From positions 1 to 64,000 of the forward strand of contig SLPX01000035.1 in NCBI GenBank assembly GCA_007131745.1: a stretch of 64,000 nt of DNA, read 5' to 3'. The DNA comes from Myxococcales bacterium. GTDB lineage: Bacteria; Myxococcota; Polyangia; HGW-17; SLPX01. The notes beneath the pieces are model-generated. The model saw nothing but the letters and a program-made list of their open reading frames with translations. It was not told the origin of the DNA and made no database searches. The translations under genes were made by a program, and so were the position numbers. Shown one piece after another: positions 45,830-59,665 of the stretch (positions are counted from its first letter, which is position 1; the number at the start of each line of letters is the position of its first letter).

Positions 45830-46446
45830 AAAACAACACTTTTCTTCTGCTTGTTTTTTTCTTTGTCGCACCGGGGTGCTCGGCCGAAATAGAAAGCACC
45901 GGCCGCAGGGGCGTAGAAGGAGCAACGCCTGCTCCGAGCAAAACGCCGAGTACAGCAAAGCGCGCCAAGCGAAAACGAACAAAAGACGATCCCACCATTC
46001 CAGCGGAAATACCCGACTTGTCTGAACGGGATTTTGTTGAAGACACCGAGTCCAACAGGGATCCGTTCAGGAGCTTCCTTGTTCCCGAGGAACTGGATGT
46101 AGAGCAGGCAAGCTTTGAAGACACCAGAGTTGTCTTGTTGGACCGGTATGAACTCACTGAATTACGCCTTACCGGAATAGTGGGAGGACGACACCGCTTC
46201 GCCATGTTCAGGGCACCCGACAACAGGACAACAAACGTGACAAGGGGAGTGCGAATCACAAAATCCAGGGCACTGGTGGTAGAGATCGCTGAGGATCATG
46301 TGATTCTACAAATCCCTCAATTAACCGACGATCAAAGACCTTCTTTCGTCGAAAGAATAGTATGGGTGGATCCCAGCAGAAGAATAATAGAAATCGGCCG
46401 CACACCGCTTAGGGCGGACGAAGAAGGAATACGGTATTCCAGATGA
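45826..46446 (+). CDS. pilP: Type IV pilus lipoprotein PilP
   Basis: 206 residues with signal peptide and lipobox VAPGC, a Pro/Thr-rich linker and a C-terminal beta domain (SNRDPFRSFLV; LRLTGIVGGRHRFAMFRAP) that binds the PilQ secretin N-domains. It bridges PilNO in the inner membrane with PilQ. The stop shares ATGA with the pilQ start, so pilP and pilQ are translationally coupled. Confidence 0.92.
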   Translation: MKNNTFLLLVFFFVAPGCSAEIESTGRRGVEGATPAPSKTPSTAKRAKRKRTKDDPTIPAEIPDLSERDFVEDTESNRDPFRSFLVPEELDVEQASFEDTRVVLLDRYELTELRLTGIVGGRHRFAMFRAPDNRTTNVTRGVRITKSRALVVEIAEDHVILQIPQLTDDQRPSFVERIVWVDPSRRIIEIGRTPLRADEEGIRYSR

Positions 46447-49400
46447 CGGTCTCACGGCAGAAAGAGAGTAGAACAATGATAACCTCAAACAGGGCCGGTC
46501 ATTTGTTTCGATTCATCGCTACGGCGACAATGATTCTTGTACTGGGGATATCCCCGCAAGCACACGGCGCACGAGGCTTAAACGCGCTCCGGGGAATAAG
46601 TTCGACAAAATCAGGAGCTACAACAAAGATATTTTTGCAGCTTGAGTCCAAGCCTACATTTACCGTCTATCGCCTGGAACGGCCTCAGCGCATCATAGTA
46701 GACTTGGCTAACACAACCGTCGAGGGATACGAAGATCCGGTTGACATCGACAGTTGGGCGGTGGGACAAGTGGCGGTCGCAAGATTTACTCACACCGGCT
46801 CAACCATCACACGGGTACTTATCGGGTTCAAGCGCCAGTCTTCCTATACTGTAGAAGCGGGGGAAAACCGCGTTGTCATAACCGTGACAGCGAACACCGA
46901 ACCGCCAGCGGATCTCGAACAAGCAAAAGCGAAACAAGCGAGAAAAGAAGCCCTGGCAGCGGAAGCTCGGGCCAATAAAGCAAAACAGCATGTAGTTAAA
47001 GCCAGAAAACAGACCGAACAGGTTAGAAAAGAAGCCCAAAGAGCGCAGAAGGAAGCGGAAGAAATCAGATCCCGCATGATCCAAGCAGAAGAACAACTGA
47101 AAGCAGCCGAGCTAAGAGCTAAGAATCTGGACACAGCGTCGAAAACAACGGCTAAAAACCTCACTGCAATGCGTTCCAGGCTGCAAAGCCTCAGAAAGGA
47201 AGCCGATCGGGCACAAAAGGAACTCGAAGAATCCAGAAAAGAAACGACCCGCCTTGAAGAAAGGGCCCGCTCCCTCAAGGGAACCACCGAAGAAGCACGA
47301 GCCGAAATGAGATCCGCGCGCGCTCAAGCCAGGCAAGCCCAGGCGGAAAGAAAGGCCGCGGAAATCGAAGCGGAAAAAGCTATAGCGACCCGTCGGGCGG
47401 CTCGTCTTTCGGCTGAAGCAGCCCTCAAAGAAAGAAAAGCTGCTCAGGCGGAAGCCGATCGCCTTAGACGACTTGCAAGAAAATTGAAAGGCACAGCGAA
47501 CGAAGCCCAGGCCAAACTGAGATGGGCCCAAGCCGAAGCGAACGCCGCCAGGCTGGAAATGGACCGAACACAACGGGAGGCCCAATCCCTTAGAAGCCAA
47601 GTTTCCCGTTTGAGAAAAGAAGAACAAGAACTCAAAATAAAAGCAGAACGTGCCGGCAAAAGAGCCGCCAAGTTAAGAACGGAAAACGCCCGCGCTGAGG
47701 CCAGGGCGGCAAGAGCCCTATGGGAAAAAAAGAAGGAAATGGCAGCCGCAAGAGAAGCGAAACGTCTTAACGCGGATCTGGCCAAAACGCGGGCAGAAGC
47801 TGAAAACGTCCGGGCCGAACTCAGACGGTTGAGACTGGAAGCTGAAGAGGCGAAAAAGCAGGCCGCCCAAAACAAGGCTGAAGTTTCTCAAACCAGGGCA
47901 CTGCTGAACCACCTCGGAGAAAGAGTAGAGAGCGCACGAGGAACTGCACTCCAAGCTGAAGCCAAAGCGGAAAAAGCAGCGGAAAAATATTCTGAAATCA
48001 AAAACAAGACTGCAAATGCTCGAAGAGCCGCTAACAAGATTCAAAAAGAACTGCACCGACTGGAGCATCGCAGACAGGCTTTGCGGGTAGAAACCGCATC
48101 TCTCTCAAGGCAGGTTACAGAGGCGAAAAAGCAGGCCGCGGCGGCCCGAAAACTGTCCCAAAACATGCAAAACAAGTTTCTTTCGGCCCGCAAAAATGTA
48201 GACCAAGCGCTTGAAGAAGTGAACAAGGCCCGCGCAAGGGTTCAAGCCCTCGAAAAACACCGCCGGGCTCTCAAGGGACAATCAGAAAACATCGAAGATC
48301 GTTTCGCGAAAGAGCGCATCGTGCGGGAAAGAGCCCTTGGTGAAGCTCAACGCCGTCTCGAAGCAGAGAGAAATGCTTTGCGGGAAGTAAGGCAAAGCAG
48401 GCTTTCAGCCGAAAAAGCCAGGGATGGAGCCATCGCTGCACTTAAAGATTTGGAAGAGAGAAAGAATCGTAATATCCGACTTGAAAAAGAAGCTCTCTCA
48501 CAGGCGCGCCGCGCCTCAAAAATGCAGGAAGCAGCCCTGACAAGAGCAAGAGCCCTCGAGCAAAAAAATGCCGAGCTGACCGAAAGACATCAAAGACTTC
48601 TGAAAGCAAGCCGCAGTGAAAGAGCAAAACATCAAGAGCTGCGAAAAGCCCTGGTAAAGCTGCAAACAAACGTCAATCAACTTCGCTCAGCTCTCAAAGA
48701 AGAAATGTCGAGAGCAGAAAAAGCCAGAACAGCCCGAGAACGCGAAGAGATGTTGGCAAGAAGCGCCAGAAAGGCGAGGCAAAATCTTCAGGAACACAAT
48801 AGGAATCTGGAGAACCAAATCAACCGCCTTAAGAAGTTAAAAGAAACCCTGTCCATGGAAAGACACCAGGATCAAAAAGCTCTTGAACAAGCCACGGCGG
48901 AACAACAAAAAGCCGAACGCAGCCGTCGACAAAAACGCGAAAAACAACGCGCTCGGGAAATACAAGAACTCGAAAGAGAAATCGCTCTTCTCAGAAAGCG
49001 GAAAGATCATGCTGCATCGACTCTGAATACCGTTACCAGGGAACACGCATCAGCCCAAAAACTGGTGCGCTCTTTGGACAACCGCCTCGCAGAGGCTCAA
49101 GCAGCGTTAAAACGTGCGGATCGAGAAAAAACGAATGCCGAAAAAGCCGTAGCAAACGCAAGAAGACAGCTCGAAGAAACCTTGCAGAGAAGGGAGAAAG
49201 AGCAGCGTTTTGTTCAAAAACTGGAGACTGAAAGAAAGGCCGAAAGCAAAAAGTTGAGAGAACTCCAAGAGCGGCGAAACCAGGTCACCGCGCAGATGAA
49301 GGGCCTCAAGACAAAACTCGAAGAAGAAAGACGCGAAATGTCGGAACTCGGCAGGGAAAGAACGCGCGTCAGAAAAACAATACAGAAAGTGCACGCCGAA

Positions 49401-51410
49401 CTCGCCCGCCTGAAGAAAAGAAAAAAGGGGGAAGAAGCCGAAAGCCGACGCCTCGAGGAAAAAAGAAAACAAATCGAAAAACAACTCCTTCAGGCCAGAG
49501 CCGAACTCAAAAAGACGCGCGCATCCTCTAAGACAGCACAAAGGCCGAACAAGAAAAAAACAAACGTAAAACGTGAAGTCACCGGAGAAATGGCCTTGGT
49601 GAATTTTCGAGATACAGGCGAAACACACCGGGTTGAATTGAAAGTTGAAGGAGACTTCGACTACAACATACAAAAAACCGGAGATAACAAGGTGTTGCTC
49701 CGCCTTTACGGGGTCAAGATTCCCAGGAAATTGGAACAAAGACTCGATACATCAGCTTTCCGAGGCCCGGTGGAAACAGTAAGCGCCTATCAGAACGACC
49801 GGAACCGTAACACTGCTGATCTGCTCGTAACACTCAAGGAACCTGCTCGATTCCGCATCAATCGAAAGGGTGAATTTCTTTGGGTGGATTTCATAAAAGG
49901 CTCCAGGGAAAGGTGGCGGGAACGTCTTGCCGAAGCCAACAGCAAAGCTCCAACCGACGCTGCCGTGGAAGTATCCGCTTCCAGAGTAAGCGGTTACAGG
50001 TCAAGAGGAACACCTCAGGGCCGGCAAAATCTTGGAAGACGTCTTGATGACGCGGCTACAAACCCATTGCGCGGCCGAGATCTCGGCCCCAGGGTGGACA
50101 TGGATTTTAAGGACGCTGATCTTCACAATGTCTTGCGGCTCATAGGACAGGTCTGGAAAAAGAATATCGTCGTACCCGATGACGTCTCAGGCAGTGTAAC
50201 CATAAGAATGGTAAACGTCAGGGTCGGCCGCGCTCTGGATGTTGTTTTGAGATCCAAAAACCTGGGCTTGGTGTGGGAAGACGCAAATATCATAAGAGTG
50301 GCAAGAGTGGAGGATATTCAGAGAGAAAGAGACCGAATAAGAGAAGAGGAGCAAAAAGCCCGCGAGGCAAGAATCCAGCAACGAGAATCCGCTCCCTCTG
50401 TGAGAGAGATTTTCCGGGTAAGTTACACGGATGTGGGTGAATTAGCGGACAAGATCAGAACCATCCTATCCCCGAGAGGCACGATCGCGGTGGACTCGCG
50501 GACAAACACGATTATCATCACGGATTTACAAGACAGGATCGAGTCCGCAAGGGATCTCACTCGAACGTTGGACATTCCAACTCCCCAGGTGATGATCGAA
50601 GCCAGGATCGTTGAAGCACGGTCTTCGTTCATGCGTGAAGTCGGTGTGCAGTGGGGCGGATCAGTGCTGGCTTCACCGGCTACCGGAGTGCCGACAGGCC
50701 TCGTGTTCCCTTATTCCGTCGGCGCATCGGGCGGAGCGACCGACGCGATGGCACCGACGAGCGGCCTTATGGGAGCAGGAGCCACCAATCCGGCCTTTGC
50801 CGTCAACCTGCCGGCAACCGTGGGAACCGGACAAGGTGGAGCGCTTGGATTGAGCCTCGGCACACTTGGAAACGTGGCGAATATCAACCTGCGTCTTTCC
50901 GCAATGGAGGAAACGGGTCAAGTCAGAATCATATCTTCACCGAAAATCACCACGCTGGACAACGTGGAAGCAAAAATCGAACAAGGTGTTCGAATTCCGA
51001 TAAGCCAAGTGTCCGCCCAGGGCGTAAACACAATCTTTGAAGAAGCTTCCCTTGGATTCACGGTCACCCCTCATGTCACCGCGGACGGCAGGGTTAGGCT
51101 TAAACTGCTCGTAGACAAGAGCGAACCGGATTTCGTCAATACCGGAGCGCGTGGTGATCCCACTATCCTGAAAAAACAGGCTCAAACTGAAATGCTGATA
51201 CCCGACGGAGACACCGCGGTAATCGGCGGAATCTACACCCGTACTACGGCAGTCGCCTATTCCAAGGTGCCCTGGTTCGCGGATATTCCAATCATCGGAT
51301 GGTTGTTCAAGAAAAAGACTCAATCCGACGACAGATCCGAATTGTTGATTTTTATTACCCCCCGAATCATAAAACAGGGTAAAGTAGAAGAACGGCAAGC
51401 AGGGAGGTAG
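46443..51410 (+). CDS. pilQ: Giant type IV pilus secretin PilQ with coiled-coil insertion
   Basis: Outer-membrane secretin through which pili pass. 1655 residues, about twice the length of typical PilQ. Order: signal peptide (ending SPQAHGA); an AMIN-type domain about 45-150; about 890 residues (about 153-1040) of Ala/Glu/Lys/Arg-rich heptad-like coiled coil; a second AMIN domain about 1042-1155 (KVEGDFDYNIQKTGDNKVLLRL); a secretin N-domain about 1218-1290 (DMDFKDADLHNVLRLIGQ); a second N-domain about 1318-1385; and the beta-barrel secretin domain ending SELLIFITPRII. AMIN domains normally bind peptidoglycan. The repetitive insertion is plausible coding DNA because both ends join known domains in one frame. 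Confidence 0.93.
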   Translation: MTVSRQKESRTMITSNRAGHLFRFIATATMILVLGISPQAHGARGLNALRGISSTKSGATTKIFLQLESKPTFTVYRLERPQRIIVDLANTTVEGYEDPVDIDSWAVGQVAVARFTHTGSTITRVLIGFKRQSSYTVEAGENRVVITVTANTEPPADLEQAKAKQARKEALAAEARANKAKQHVVKARKQTEQVRKEAQRAQKEAEEIRSRMIQAEEQLKAAELRAKNLDTASKTTAKNLTAMRSRLQSLRKEADRAQKELEESRKETTRLEERARSLKGTTEEARAEMRSARAQARQAQAERKAAEIEAEKAIATRRAARLSAEAALKERKAAQAEADRLRRLARKLKGTANEAQAKLRWAQAEANAARLEMDRTQREAQSLRSQVSRLRKEEQELKIKAERAGKRAAKLRTENARAEARAARALWEKKKEMAAAREAKRLNADLAKTRAEAENVRAELRRLRLEAEEAKKQAAQNKAEVSQTRALLNHLGERVESARGTALQAEAKAEKAAEKYSEIKNKTANARRAANKIQKELHRLEHRRQALRVETASLSRQVTEAKKQAAAARKLSQNMQNKFLSARKNVDQALEEVNKARARVQALEKHRRALKGQSENIEDRFAKERIVRERALGEAQRRLEAERNALREVRQSRLSAEKARDGAIAALKDLEERKNRNIRLEKEALSQARRASKMQEAALTRARALEQKNAELTERHQRLLKASRSERAKHQELRKALVKLQTNVNQLRSALKEEMSRAEKARTAREREEMLARSARKARQNLQEHNRNLENQINRLKKLKETLSMERHQDQKALEQATAEQQKAERSRRQKREKQRAREIQELEREIALLRKRKDHAASTLNTVTREHASAQKLVRSLDNRLAEAQAALKRADREKTNAEKAVANARRQLEETLQRREKEQRFVQKLETERKAESKKLRELQERRNQVTAQMKGLKTKLEEERREMSELGRERTRVRKTIQKVHAELARLKKRKKGEEAESRRLEEKRKQIEKQLLQARAELKKTRASSKTAQRPNKKKTNVKREVTGEMALVNFRDTGETHRVELKVEGDFDYNIQKTGDNKVLLRLYGVKIPRKLEQRLDTSAFRGPVETVSAYQNDRNRNTADLLVTLKEPARFRINRKGEFLWVDFIKGSRERWRERLAEANSKAPTDAAVEVSASRVSGYRSRGTPQGRQNLGRRLDDAATNPLRGRDLGPRVDMDFKDADLHNVLRLIGQVWKKNIVVPDDVSGSVTIRMVNVRVGRALDVVLRSKNLGLVWEDANIIRVARVEDIQRERDRIREEEQKAREARIQQRESAPSVREIFRVSYTDVGELADKIRTILSPRGTIAVDSRTNTIIITDLQDRIESARDLTRTLDIPTPQVMIEARIVEARSSFMREVGVQWGGSVLASPATGVPTGLVFPYSVGASGGATDAMAPTSGLMGAGATNPAFAVNLPATVGTGQGGALGLSLGTLGNVANINLRLSAMEETGQVRIISSPKITTLDNVEAKIEQGVRIPISQVSAQGVNTIFEEASLGFTVTPHVTADGRVRLKLLVDKSEPDFVNTGARGDPTILKKQAQTEMLIPDGDTAVIGGIYTRTTAVAYSKVPWFADIPIIGWLFKKKTQSDDRSELLIFITPRIIKQGKVEERQAGR

Positions 51411-51415
51411 AGATC

Positions 51416-52132
51416 ATGAAGAGTGTCGGATTGCTATGCACCATGTTTTTTTTCACTTTGGGATGCCAAGAAAACATTTCTCTGTTAATCTTGCAAAATC
51501 AAATGCCGGGCGCGGGTTGTGCCATCGAGGATTCGGAAGCCGGCAATCACCGATCCGAAGGCACCCTGGATGTTTCGTGGTATCTCAGGGCCGGACAACC
51601 TACGGGATACTACATGTTTCCGCTCTTGAAAAACAACATGATGCCGACGGCAGGCACCGGTGAAGGAGAGCAGAACTGCATGACGGTAAGAGAAGCCGAA
51701 GTGGATCTCAAGCTAGGGGCATTGGGAGATGCGGTCGAAACGACCAAGTACAAGGTTCCAACTGCAGTAACAGTCTGTCCGGGACAAACCCGGGCCGTTC
51801 AGCTGCTTGTGATACCTCCCCAAATAGTAGAGTCGATTGCGTCCAGGATACCTGAAAACGGGTCGGAATACGCAAGTGTAAAGATCAGGATGATTGCAAA
51901 GCGAGGACGCACGACAATCAAGTCCAATTCATTTACCTTTCCTATCAATATTTGCAATGGATGTCTCATTAAGAACTTGGGAAATTGCGATTCTCCCGCC
52001 ATTCCCAACGATCCCGACATAGGAAACGATTGCAATCCGGCGCAAGACGACCGCCTGGAATGTTGTACGTCCGGCGTAGAATGGATTTGCCCCGCGGAAT
52101 CTACGTATGAACAACGTCCTCCGGATGGCTGA
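51416..52132 (+). CDS. Lipoprotein behind pilQ, unrecognised
   Basis: 238 residues. Signal peptide with lipobox FTLGC (Cys17), about 14 cysteines in the mature part, and short beta strands (LDVSWYLRAG, VDLKLGALG, AVQLLVIPPQIV). It starts six bases after the pilQ stop, so it is in the pil transcript and could be an outer-membrane pilot or accessory lipoprotein for PilQ, by position only. The C-terminal 60 residues are Cys and Asp rich. Its end overlaps the Roadblock gene region by a few codons if the latter uses its earlier start. Confidence 0.55.
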   Translation: MKSVGLLCTMFFFTLGCQENISLLILQNQMPGAGCAIEDSEAGNHRSEGTLDVSWYLRAGQPTGYYMFPLLKNNMMPTAGTGEGEQNCMTVREAEVDLKLGALGDAVETTKYKVPTAVTVCPGQTRAVQLLVIPPQIVESIASRIPENGSEYASVKIRMIAKRGRTTIKSNSFTFPINICNGCLIKNLGNCDSPAIPNDPDIGNDCNPAQDDRLECCTSGVEWICPAESTYEQRPPDG

Positions 52133-52560: not shown

Positions 52561-54435
52561 ATGAGTTCCCAAAAGGCGCTGATAATCGAAAGTGACCACG
52601 CTTTTGCCTCTTCTATCGAAAGCATGTTGGAACCCTACGGTTTTCAATCCGACATAATCAACGACGGAGCAGCCGGTCTCCAGAGAGCAAAAGACCAGCC
52701 TCCCGATCTCATAGTCCTGTGTGTCGAACTTCCGAAAATGAGCGGCTACGCTGTTTGCAACAAGCTCAAGAAAAGTAAGGGTCTGAAAAAAGTACCCCTT
52801 ATCATTATGTCAGCGGAGGCGACTCCGGAAACGTTTGAACAGCACAAGAAGCTGAAAACTCGGGCCGATGCTTATGTGCTGAAAAACGAGGAGTTTACAC
52901 AGGAAGTGTTTATCGGCGCAGTAGGGAAACTCGTAACCCTTGAAACAGCTCAACAGGAGGAAAGCCCGATAACGGAACAAGATCCCGACCTGGATAATGA
53001 AACCGACGCTGCTTTTTCCGAACTTGAAGTTGATAATGAAGAAAACCCCATAGAAGAGATTTCTTCAGAAGAAACCGAGATCCATGATTTTGAAATGGGC
53101 GACATTGACGAAGACGTGCTCGAGATGGATGAAGAACCCATCGAAGAAGAGATCATTGAAGAGGAAGTGTCTATTGATGATGACATGATGGACCTTGGGT
53201 TGGACGAAGTGCTGGAAGAAGTCGGTTCGGAAGAAGATCAAGCACCCGACGAAACGTATGCAAAAGAAGAAACGGGTGTTCCAAACCAAATCGCAGATGA
53301 GCTCAAGGCGCTGAGAGAAGAACGGGATGCGCTTGAAAAGAAATTAGAAGAGGCTCTTTCCGGAAAAGAAGCGGTAGCGGAAAAAACCTTTGACCGGGAA
53401 CGGGAATTCCTGAACCTGAGAGAAACCATCAATAAGAAAGAGCGCCAACTCCTGGAATTAAATGAAACCTTGGATGCCAAGGAAAGAGAAATACTGGACA
53501 AAAAGGAAGCCCTCCGAAAGCACGAAAGAACCAAACAAGAGCTGGATGCTAAAATCCTGGATCTGGATCGTGAAAAGTTCGAGGTTCTTGAAAAAGCCGA
53601 AGGGTTGAACAAGGAGCTTCAAACAACAAAAGATCTTTTGGCAAAAACCATCAGTGAAAAGGAAGAACTTGAAAAAGAACTGAATTTGACAAGAAATTCT
53701 GCCCAAGAAGCCGAAGAAGTGCATAGAAACGATTTAGCATCTCTCAAGTCGGCCCATCAGCAGGAACTCGAAAACACCCGAAACGTACACAGGGCTGAGA
53801 TAGATTCCCTCAAATCACAGCACGAAGAATCCTTAAATGAACTCAACTCGGCTCATCAAAAAGAGCTTGAAAACACCAAGAATGAACTCAACTCGGCTCA
53901 TCAAGAAGAGCTTGAAAACACCAAGAATGAACTCAACTCGGCTCATCAGCAGGAACTCGAAAACACCCGAAACGTACACAGGGCTGAGATCGATTCCCTC
54001 AAATCACAGCACGAAGAATCCTTAAATGAACTCAAGTCCGCTCATCAAGAAGAGCTTGAAAATACAAAGAATAAACTCAACTCCGCGCATGCTGAAGAAA
54101 CAACCTCTCTAAAAGAGCGTTTTGAGAACCGAATCCAGGAAATTGAAACCGACTTTTCTGGAAGACAGGAAGAGCAGAAAACTTTATATGAAAATCGAAT
54201 CGCCGACTTAGAAAACAATATCGAGAATCTGGATCGCGTGCTTAAACAAACGACAAAAGAAAAAGAGACTCTTTCCGAGCATTACGATTCATTAACCATG
54301 AAATTTGAAGAAGCAGAGCAACGAATGTCCGGGAACGCAGCTGTAGTAGATCGGACAAAGCAGGCGCTTGCAGTTGCATTGACCCTACTGGATGAACAGT
54401 TCGCATATGCTGAAGAAGAGTCCGATCAGGAATAG
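52561..54435 (+). CDS. frzS: FrzS-like pseudo-receiver and coiled-coil protein
   Basis: 624 residues: an N-terminal CheY-like receiver (residues 1-125) followed by an acidic linker and a long coiled coil, as in Myxococcus FrzS, the polar protein needed for S-motility (type IV pilus) control. Internal match to FrzS: KALIIESD, GYAVCNKLKKSKGLKKVP and QHKKLKTRADAYV. The phosphoacceptor Asp is Cys54 (DLIVLCVEL), so it is a pseudo-receiver, as FrzS also lacks the Asp. Residues about 400-510 contain tandem repeats of a 15- and 63-residue unit. Gene proximity to pilQ and the Roadblock protein supports a pilus polarity role. Confidence 0.8.
   Translation: MSSQKALIIESDHAFASSIESMLEPYGFQSDIINDGAAGLQRAKDQPPDLIVLCVELPKMSGYAVCNKLKKSKGLKKVPLIIMSAEATPETFEQHKKLKTRADAYVLKNEEFTQEVFIGAVGKLVTLETAQQEESPITEQDPDLDNETDAAFSELEVDNEENPIEEISSEETEIHDFEMGDIDEDVLEMDEEPIEEEIIEEEVSIDDDMMDLGLDEVLEEVGSEEDQAPDETYAKEETGVPNQIADELKALREERDALEKKLEEALSGKEAVAEKTFDREREFLNLRETINKKERQLLELNETLDAKEREILDKKEALRKHERTKQELDAKILDLDREKFEVLEKAEGLNKELQTTKDLLAKTISEKEELEKELNLTRNSAQEAEEVHRNDLASLKSAHQQELENTRNVHRAEIDSLKSQHEESLNELNSAHQKELENTKNELNSAHQEELENTKNELNSAHQQELENTRNVHRAEIDSLKSQHEESLNELKSAHQEELENTKNKLNSAHAEETTSLKERFENRIQEIETDFSGRQEEQKTLYENRIADLENNIENLDRVLKQTTKEKETLSEHYDSLTMKFEEAEQRMSGNAAVVDRTKQALAVALTLLDEQFAYAEEESDQE
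53755..54090 (+). repeat. Tandem DNA repeats in the FrzS-like coiled coil
   Basis: A 45-bp unit (Asn-Glu-Leu-Asn-Ser-Ala-His-Gln...Glu-Leu-Glu-Asn-Thr-Lys) occurs at 53836-53880, 53881-53925 and from 53926, and a longer unit of 189 bp (starting CAGGAACTCGAAAAC) recurs at 53761 and 53950. The near identity indicates recent internal duplication of whole heptads. Confidence 0.85.
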
Positions 54436-58597: not shown

Positions 58598-59665
58598 ATG
58601 GCGGATCCTAGACCAGGCGGAGAGCCGACTGAAAAACCAACCCCAAAAAGACTGCGGGATGCGCGAAAAAAAGGACAGGTCGCAAAAAGCAGGGATTTTT
58701 CCGGTGTGTTCGTTTTCTGGGCTGGTTTGACGGTTATCATAATGACGGCATCCAACAGCGCGGCTCGCATGATGTTGATTTTGAGAACCTGTTTCACGTC
58801 CGCAGAAAACCCAAGCTCTTCCCTGCTGCGTGCACATCTTGATTTGAGCTTGACCCAGATGTTTTTGATCCTTGCGCCCATTGTCGGCGCTGTGTTTGTC
58901 GGCTCCATTGCGGCGGGCTTTCTTCAAACCCGGGGACTATTCACACTGGAACCACTGAAGCCCAAGTTGAGTCATCTAAACATCATGAAAGGACTCGGAC
59001 GACTCGTAGGCAAACAAAGCCTCTTTACTATGGCTAAAACATTATTGTTTTTCTGCGCGGCGGGTTTCCTGGCCTATTTCACGATAAGACAACAACTTCC
59101 CTCCCTGATGCGTACTTTGGGAGCACACCCTCGGGGTATAACCACCGTAATTTTTGAAGTGTTTCAAACGCTTTGTATCAGGATGGGACTTCTGTTTGTT
59201 GTGGCTGGTATAGCAGACTATGCTTTCAACCGGCACAGCCATCAAAAGAAAATGATGATGACAAAATACGAAGTACGCAAGGAAATGAAAGAATCCGAGG
59301 GAGATCCCCAACACAAAAACCGCCGCCGAGAAGTGCACCAGGAAATACTCGAAAGCGCAATGATTCAAAGCGTAGCAGATGCGGATTTCGTGGTCTGCAA
59401 TCCTACTAAACTGGCTCTGGCTCTCAGATACCACAGGGAAAAAGATAACGCTCCTGTAGTAATCGCCAAGGGTCAAAACCTGCTGGCCAAAAAAATCCGA
59501 GAAGCCGCCCAAAGCGCGGGTGTTCCTATTTTTCACGATGTATCTCTCGCCCGGGCACTGTGGGAACTGGACTTGAATCGAGAAATTCCTCAAGAACTTT
59601 ATGAAGCAGTCGCCGTTATTCTGAAAACCATCAGTGAAGAATCTGAAAGCAACGGGCGGAAATAG
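58598..59665 (+). CDS. SctU/FlhB-family export switch protein with NPTK instead of NPTH
   Basis: 355 residues with the FlhB/YscU layout: N-terminal PTPKRLRDARKKGQVAKSRDF, four transmembrane segments (about 35-55, 86-109, 145-163, 182-210), then a charged cytoplasmic domain. The autocleavage motif normally NPTH is NPTK here (Asn268-Pro269-Thr270-Lys271); Asn and Pro, which drive cleavage, are kept. The next residues LALALRYH and EDxAP-like pattern follow as usual. It switches substrate specificity in flagellar or injectisome type III export. No other clear export gene is in the window, so injectisome versus flagellar is undecided. AGGAGGA lies upstream of ATG. Confidence 0.85.
   Translation: MADPRPGGEPTEKPTPKRLRDARKKGQVAKSRDFSGVFVFWAGLTVIIMTASNSAARMMLILRTCFTSAENPSSSLLRAHLDLSLTQMFLILAPIVGAVFVGSIAAGFLQTRGLFTLEPLKPKLSHLNIMKGLGRLVGKQSLFTMAKTLLFFCAAGFLAYFTIRQQLPSLMRTLGAHPRGITTVIFEVFQTLCIRMGLLFVVAGIADYAFNRHSHQKKMMMTKYEVRKEMKESEGDPQHKNRRREVHQEILESAMIQSVADADFVVCNPTKLALALRYHREKDNAPVVIAKGQNLLAKKIREAAQSAGVPIFHDVSLARALWELDLNREIPQELYEAVAVILKTISEESESNGRK

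What the first reader, a model, noticed from the sequence alone, without database searches (positions are those of the whole stretch)
46443..51410. Giant PilQ secretin with about 890 residues of coiled coil inserted between two AMIN domains
Typical PilQ proteins are roughly 700-900 residues. This one is 1655, with a charged heptad-like helical region from about residue 153 to 1040 and intact AMIN, N-domains and secretin barrel. As PilQ forms a ring of about 12 to 15 subunits, that insertion would make a very large coiled-coil basket or tether in the periplasm, possibly extending the envelope span, binding peptidoglycan over a distance, or recruiting other factors. The DNA is in one frame throughout and joins known domains, so it is not an obvious artefact.
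Basis: partly seen in the sequence, partly recalled or inferred. Interest (0 to 1): 0.8.

Follow-up and report, generated by a model that had tools for sequence, protein, structure and literature searches.

The report
Giant coiled-coil pilus gate in Myxococcota
The outer-membrane gate of the type IV pilus in this bacterium really carries a coiled-coil arm of almost 900 residues, and similar arms (up to about 1,700 residues) are common in one large group of Myxococcota but were not found in the Myxococcus-type relatives examined, so they may be an overlooked long-range anchor of the pilus to the cell wall.

Summary
Window 46443-51410 is one intact 1655-aa frame after pilMNOP. It is a real PilQ (TIGR02515 387 bits, cut-off 284) with two AMIN domains and an 879-residue proline-free heptad coiled coil between them. 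No DNA repeat arrays suggest an assembly error.

It is not a one-off. In a tree of 117 PilQ cores, one clade (support 98) has the coil in 51 of 73 scorable rows, and the 22 without it all fall in one subclade (99). The longest is 2472 aa. Eight Myxococcus/Anaeromyxobacter-type rows lack it. Another phylum had no frame of 1200 aa or more among 150 listed.

The envelope-widening idea gains little support: PilO and PilP lengths do not follow coil length; PilN is slightly longer. A tether is supported. The distal AMIN1 has the AmiC AMIN fold. Pooled over 135 coils, g-to-e' charges are complementary (z -14), as in parallel in-register coils, unlike SMC arms. The window's own coil shows no such signal.

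Best reading: neighbouring PilQ subunits zip their coils into long parallel cables that carry peptidoglycan-binding AMIN1 domains away from the ring. Geometry and function are inferred. No listed paper described it. New variant of a known kind.

The parts
46443..51410 (+). pilQ, 1655 aa, giant type IV pilus secretin
46581..46895 (+). AMIN1 (residues 47-151), beta-sandwich at the far (N-terminal) end of the coil
46908..49544 (+). coiled coil, residues 156-1034, proline-free, heptad period 3.5, net charge +96
49584..49895 (+). AMIN2 (residues 1048-1151)
50100..50300 (+). N0 domain (residues 1220-1286)
   Evidence: Pfam PF21305, 27.1 bits at a cut-off of 27
50406..50588 (+). N1 / Secretin_N domain (residues 1322-1382)
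   Evidence: Pfam PF03958
50901..51374 (+). secretin barrel domain (residues 1487-1644)
   Evidence: Pfam PF00263, 158 bits
43443..44498 (+). pilM
   Evidence: PF11104, TIGR01175
44498..45205 (+). pilN, 235 aa
   Evidence: PF05137
45224..45829 (+). pilO, 201 aa, ordinary length
   Evidence: PF04350
45826..46446 (+). pilP, 206 aa, ordinary length
   Evidence: PF04351
51416..52132 (+). pilQ-linked lipoprotein-like gene, 238 aa, no Pfam/NCBIfam family; possible partner of PilQ

Best explanation
Pilus secretin with a very long, homotypic, parallel coiled-coil tether. SHOWN by sequence: layout AMIN1 - coil (879 residues) - AMIN2 - N0 - N1 - secretin barrel, in a pilMNOPQ operon. The coil is under constraint as a heptad coiled coil and is the common state in a large Myxococcota clade. 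INFERRED: PilQ forms the usual ring (12-15 subunits, PMC10653833). AMIN2 and the N domains sit in the ring as in other PilQs. The coil leaves the ring at AMIN2 and pairs in parallel and in register with the coil of neighbouring subunits, giving cables about 130 nm long if fully extended (879 x 0.1485 nm, textbook rise). These end in AMIN1, which binds peptidoglycan as other AMIN domains are reported to do. Since 130 nm exceeds even the 70-nm periplasm of T. thermophilus (PMC4463427) and PilO and PilP are of normal length, the cables should run sideways along the cell wall, or bend. They would act as long-range roots that recruit the ring to peptidoglycan and spread pilus retraction load over many anchor points.
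Against: In the window's own coil the g-to-e' signal is absent (z 0.3, n 122) and only weak in seven near relatives (z -2.4). The SMC control has seven times fewer pairs, and 21 of 36 arms also lean attractive. The AF2 helical part has block pLDDT of 39-81 and breaks into long helices 157-277, 284-411, 414-550, 626-816 and 819-994, so the model says nothing sure about extension or hairpins. PilN is longer with the coil (227 against 212) and in the group with the longest coils (L119-L121) it is 362-363 aa, with PilO about 243 from its likely start, which leaves room for some envelope adjustment. Coil length varies widely between lineages, so no fixed distance is being measured. Multiples of 7 could also come from slippage between heptad-coding repeats. 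PG binding by this AMIN1, lateral course and load bearing are untested.
Confidence: 0.5

Rival explanations
1. The coil of each subunit folds back on itself (antiparallel hairpins), bringing AMIN1 next to AMIN2 and making a compact helical skirt or basket round the pilus inside the periplasm.
For: As a monomer AF2 breaks the coil into five long helices with a low-confidence gap near residues 551-625, close to the middle. Register breaks exist at 429, 632 and 838. A hairpin would fit a thin periplasm better.
Against: No obvious turn: 1.3% Gly and no Pro in the coil. The pooled charge signal is of the parallel in-register kind and differs from SMC arms, though not seen in this coil alone.
Confidence: 0.25
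2. The coil spaces the outer membrane ring from the inner membrane, i.e. these bacteria have a wider envelope at the pilus machine.
For: Coiled-coil OM-cell wall spacers of this sort exist (SlpA/OmpM; PMC9388160). PilN is longer in coil loci (227 against 212 aa, p 4e-4, rho 0.39) and 362-363 aa in L119-L121, which have the longest coils.
Against: PilO 208 against 206 and PilP 215 against 212 aa, no correlation with coil length. 130 nm, and over 250 nm if the longest is extended, exceeds any periplasm I know of.
Confidence: 0.07
3. The coil is a charged matrix for ligands: in the window's clade it is strongly basic and could hold incoming DNA during uptake, or bind anionic wall polymers.
For: Net +96 in P0001 and +156, +179, +154, +206, +212 in P0004-P0007 and L003, spread along the whole coil of P0001, while its AMIN domains and C-terminal core are near neutral.
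Against: Median over 170 coils is only +0.025 per residue and some are acidic, so it cannot be the general role; no competence evidence was sought.
Confidence: 0.08
4. A weakly selected, expandable low-complexity region with no distinct role, tolerated because it hangs in the periplasm.
For: Length varies from 233 to 1725 residues; L122 shows recent-looking internal repeats; coil identity 51% against 79% in the N0-secretin core; heptad signal weak in L127.
Against: In 12 coils tested the best period for strong hydrophobics was 3.5 or 3.57 in all 12. No proline over hundreds of residues, no indels over about 340 residues to L001, coil kept across most of a clade.
Confidence: 0.1

Closest known systems
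Type IVa pilus secretin PilQ of Myxococcus xanthus (three AMIN domains; secretins of 12-15 subunits; PMC10653833, passages read)
   Different: M. xanthus itself was not fetched; in my tree the eight Myxococcus/Anaeromyxobacter-type rows are 756-969 aa and none has the coil
SlpA / OmpM outer membrane-peptidoglycan connectors (PMC9388160, abstract and one section read)
   Same: Outer membrane barrel, long parallel coiled coil, cell-wall-binding domain at the far N-terminal end: same functional layout
   Different: Porin-like barrel and SLH domain instead of secretin and AMIN; no homology claimed
Thermus thermophilus PilQ (PMC4463427, passages read)
   Same: PilQ with an enlarged periplasmic part in a wide (about 70 nm) periplasm
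   Different: 757 residues (abstract of PMC5745081 in a search listing); ring-shaped N domains, no such coil mentioned in the passages seen

Membership tests
PilQ type IVa pilus secretin | TIGR02515 above curated cut-off | tested here: met
   387 bits against 284
PilQ type IVa pilus secretin | N0, N1 and secretin domains in order | tested here: met
   (N0 only just over its cut-off)
PilQ type IVa pilus secretin | AMIN domain(s), frequent but not universal | tested here: met
   two: Pfam and fold
PilQ type IVa pilus secretin | Gene next to pilMNOP | tested here: met
PilQ type IVa pilus secretin | Forms an outer membrane ring that passes the pilus | not testable with these tools
   needs experiment
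SlpA/OmpM connector | SLH domain | tested here: not met
   no SLH match at E <= 0.001 in the Pfam scan
SlpA/OmpM connector | Parallel homo-oligomeric coiled-coil stalk | tested here: inconclusive
   pooled family signal yes, window's own coil no signal
Single alpha-helix (SAH) domain | charged helix without a hydrophobic heptad seam | tested here: not met
   a and d positions 64% and 83% hydrophobic including Ala, period 3.5

The most novel reading that the evidence does not exclude
Many Myxococcota outside the Myxococcus-type and Polyangiaceae-type lineages build each type IV pilus on a crown of parallel coiled-coil cables, 35 to 250 nm long if extended, zipped between neighbouring PilQ subunits and running sideways through the periplasm to peptidoglycan-binding AMIN1 heads: a root system that spreads retraction force over a large patch of wall and decouples pilus strength from local wall strength.
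Probability: 0.3. Interest if true: 0.85.

Novelty: new variant of a known kind. Interest (0 to 1): 0.62.

Why it matters
How a machine that can pull with well over 100 pN (abstract of PMC3724824, seen in listings) is held in the cell wall is an open mechanical question. A PilQ form with a tether of hundreds of residues, common in one clade and missing in one subclade of it, offers a natural experiment and a simple genetic test. The Myxococcus-type rows examined lack it, so the best studied myxobacterial pilus machine may be a form without this part (M. xanthus PilQ is about 900 aa, recalled).

Full report

THE INSERT. Residues 156-1034 contain no proline. Of 11 periods tested, hydrophobic residues repeat best at 3.5, with z 15 (ILVMFYW) or 18 (with Ala) against shuffles; the signal falls to z 8 at 3.6 and 0-2 at 3.67. 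A simple register assignment needs three breaks, and positions a and d are 64% and 83% hydrophobic including Ala. This is a true heptad coil and not a single alpha-helix domain. Tandem Repeats Finder reports only three 2-copy scraps in the region. Against L001, the closest contig of the genome scan (74% best-segment identity), the overlapping coil part (352 codons) is 51% identical, with third-position changes dominant (pS 0.83, saturated; pN 0.33) and no indel in about 340 residues. The N0-secretin core is 79% identical.

IT IS NOT UNIQUE. A search with residues 1070-1655, which admits only proteins of 0.55-1.75 times the full length, returned 1262 proteins (7996 candidates scored); the best 120 were listed. 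Of eleven whose sequences I printed, ten show by eye AMIN1, coil and AMIN2, and the eleventh (P0003) starts inside a coil. A survey of the phylum of L003's genome (377 genomes, 311 with a match at E <= 1e-80) listed 150 open frames: 56 of 150 were at least 1000 aa, 25 at least 1200, 5 at least 2000, the longest 2478. These are the best-scoring 150, not a random sample, and open frames can overstate length. The same survey of the phylum of L077's genome, a record titled Thermodesulfobacteriota (198 genomes, 136 with a match; 150 frames listed), had a longest frame of 1097, 7 of at least 1000 and none of 1200 or more; those sequences were not inspected for coils. In eight coil-bearing genomes searched, one match per genome passed the PilQ cut-off, so the giant seems to be the only PilQ there.

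PHYLOGENY. A tree of 117 PilQ cores without the insert, with labels corrected, has 54 coil, 55 coil-less and 8 unknown rows and needs four changes. One clade (support 98) of 78 rows holds 51 coil, 22 coil-less and 5 unknown (truncated) rows. All 22 coil-less rows lie in one subclade of 23 (support 99), which by record titles includes Polyangiaceae and Labilithrix MAGs; its 23rd row, a truncated Sandaracinaceae contig, is unknown. The simplest history is one gain and one loss there; the tree cannot strictly tell gain from loss. Three further coil rows (L049, L057, L054) lie outside that clade. The group with the Myxococcus and Anaeromyxobacter MAGs has no coil in any of 8 rows. The longest examples (L119-L121, 2249-2472 aa; up to 1728 residues without proline) sit on the other side of the 78-row clade from the window.

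TESTING THE ENVELOPE-SPACER IDEA. I compared PilN, PilO and PilP upstream of coil and coil-less PilQs (repeated on 104 full-length rows without doubled contigs and L139: 50 with coil >= 150, 50 with < 60, 4 between). PilO: median 208 (n 43) against 206 (n 47), p 0.36, rho 0.00 with coil length. PilP: 215 (n 44) against 212 (n 45), p 0.96, rho 0.07. PilN: 227 (n 43) against 212 (n 46), p 4e-4, rho 0.39, not corrected for relatedness. Against my reading, L119-L121, which have the longest coils, have a PilN of 362-363 aa and a PilO of about 243 aa from its likely start. Over the whole set PilO and PilP do not lengthen with a coil that grows from 0 to 1725 residues.

HOW THE COILS ASSOCIATE. In a parallel, in-register coiled coil, a charge at position g faces position e of the next heptad of the partner (i to i'+5), so identical chains show opposite charges at g and e five residues on. 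In 135 non-redundant coils this is strong (effect -0.07, z about -14, with two register methods). The other six i+5 positions have z between -0.8 and +6.7, and the sign is attractive in 101 of 135 proteins. 36 arms of 18 SMC proteins from the same phylum, which pair antiparallel within one chain, show nothing (effect 0.003-0.006, z 0.3-0.4; 1590 against 11,000 pairs; 21 of 36 arms lean attractive). The window's coil alone shows no signal (z 0.3, 122 pairs) and seven near relatives only z -2.4, so for this protein the parallel reading is by family. Relatedness and internal repeats inflate the z-scores. Indels between 39 disjoint coil pairs are multiples of 7 in 34 of 129 cases (p 2e-4; with other gap penalties 30 of 145, p 0.02, and 26 of 85, p 9e-5). 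Slippage between heptad-coding repeats could contribute.

MECHANISM. AMIN domains of PilQ are proposed to bind septal and polar peptidoglycan and are needed for polar recruitment of PilQ in M. xanthus; secretin barrels have 12-15 subunits and that machine a width of 15-20 nm (PMC10653833; passages read). Putting an extra AMIN at the end of a coil of some 130 nm contour length, in a machine whose PilO and PilP are ordinary, suggests tethers that run sideways to the wall. The closest functional parallel is SlpA/OmpM: outer membrane barrel, parallel coil, wall-binding N-terminus (PMC9388160; outline with abstract and one section read). Coils that diverge in sequence but keep length act as spacers (PMC5082667; passages). 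Within the window's relatives lengths stay at 835-993, but between lineages they do not, so any spacing function is lineage-specific.

CHARGE. The window's coil carries net +96 and its relatives' up to +212, while over 170 coils the median is +0.025 per residue. The basic character is a trait of this clade and some others, unexplained.

LITERATURE. Paper searches were made; most listed only their best papers (for example 20 of 37, 10 of 584). No title or abstract start in those listings describes a coiled coil in PilQ. Two surveys of myxobacterial pilus genes (PMC6060248 and PMC13190605; passages only) do not mention it in the passages shown; the word 'coiled' does not occur in PMC6060248. The library lacks most subscription journals, so this is no proof of absence from print.

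VERDICT. Real, constrained, common in one clade and, as far as my searches go, undescribed; function inferred.

Noticed in passing
window 51416-52132; homologues in L001-L004, L006, L008, L014, L015, L018, L137, L146 and others: Family of lipoprotein-like genes (invariant Cys after a signal-like start in the 30 aligned, CxGCL motif in many) directly or closely 3' of pilQ, without Pfam or NCBIfam match. Found within 3.5 kb in 28 of 28 coil loci and 16 of 38 coil-less loci with enough flank (includes contigs held twice, confounded by kinship), weakly also in a Myxococcus MAG (L046, E 7e-6). AF2 pLDDT 92, mostly beta, no strong PDB match. Possible PilQ partner.
   Followed up: partly
window 52561-54435: 624-aa protein: receiver domain plus coiled coil, second gene after pilQ, an architecture like FrzS/AglZ (names recalled); homologue at the same place in L001.
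   Followed up: partly
window 58598-59665: SctU/FlhB-like type III secretion export protein downstream of the pilus region (335 bits, under the SctU cut-off of 358).
   Followed up: no
L119-L124: PilQs of 1906-2472 aa with proline-free stretches of 1179-1728 residues (measured in L119, L122-L124); L122 with recent-looking internal repeats; L119-L121 also have an unusually long PilN of 362-363 aa.
   Followed up: partly
window 46908-49544 and P0003-P0008, L003, L004: Coil strongly basic (net +91 to +212 per subunit; P0003 is partial) in this and some other lineages, near neutral in most.
   Followed up: partly
L056, L158: PilQs over 1100 aa without coil that carry Pro/Ala-rich stretches instead: other lineages may enlarge PilQ in a different way.
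   Followed up: no
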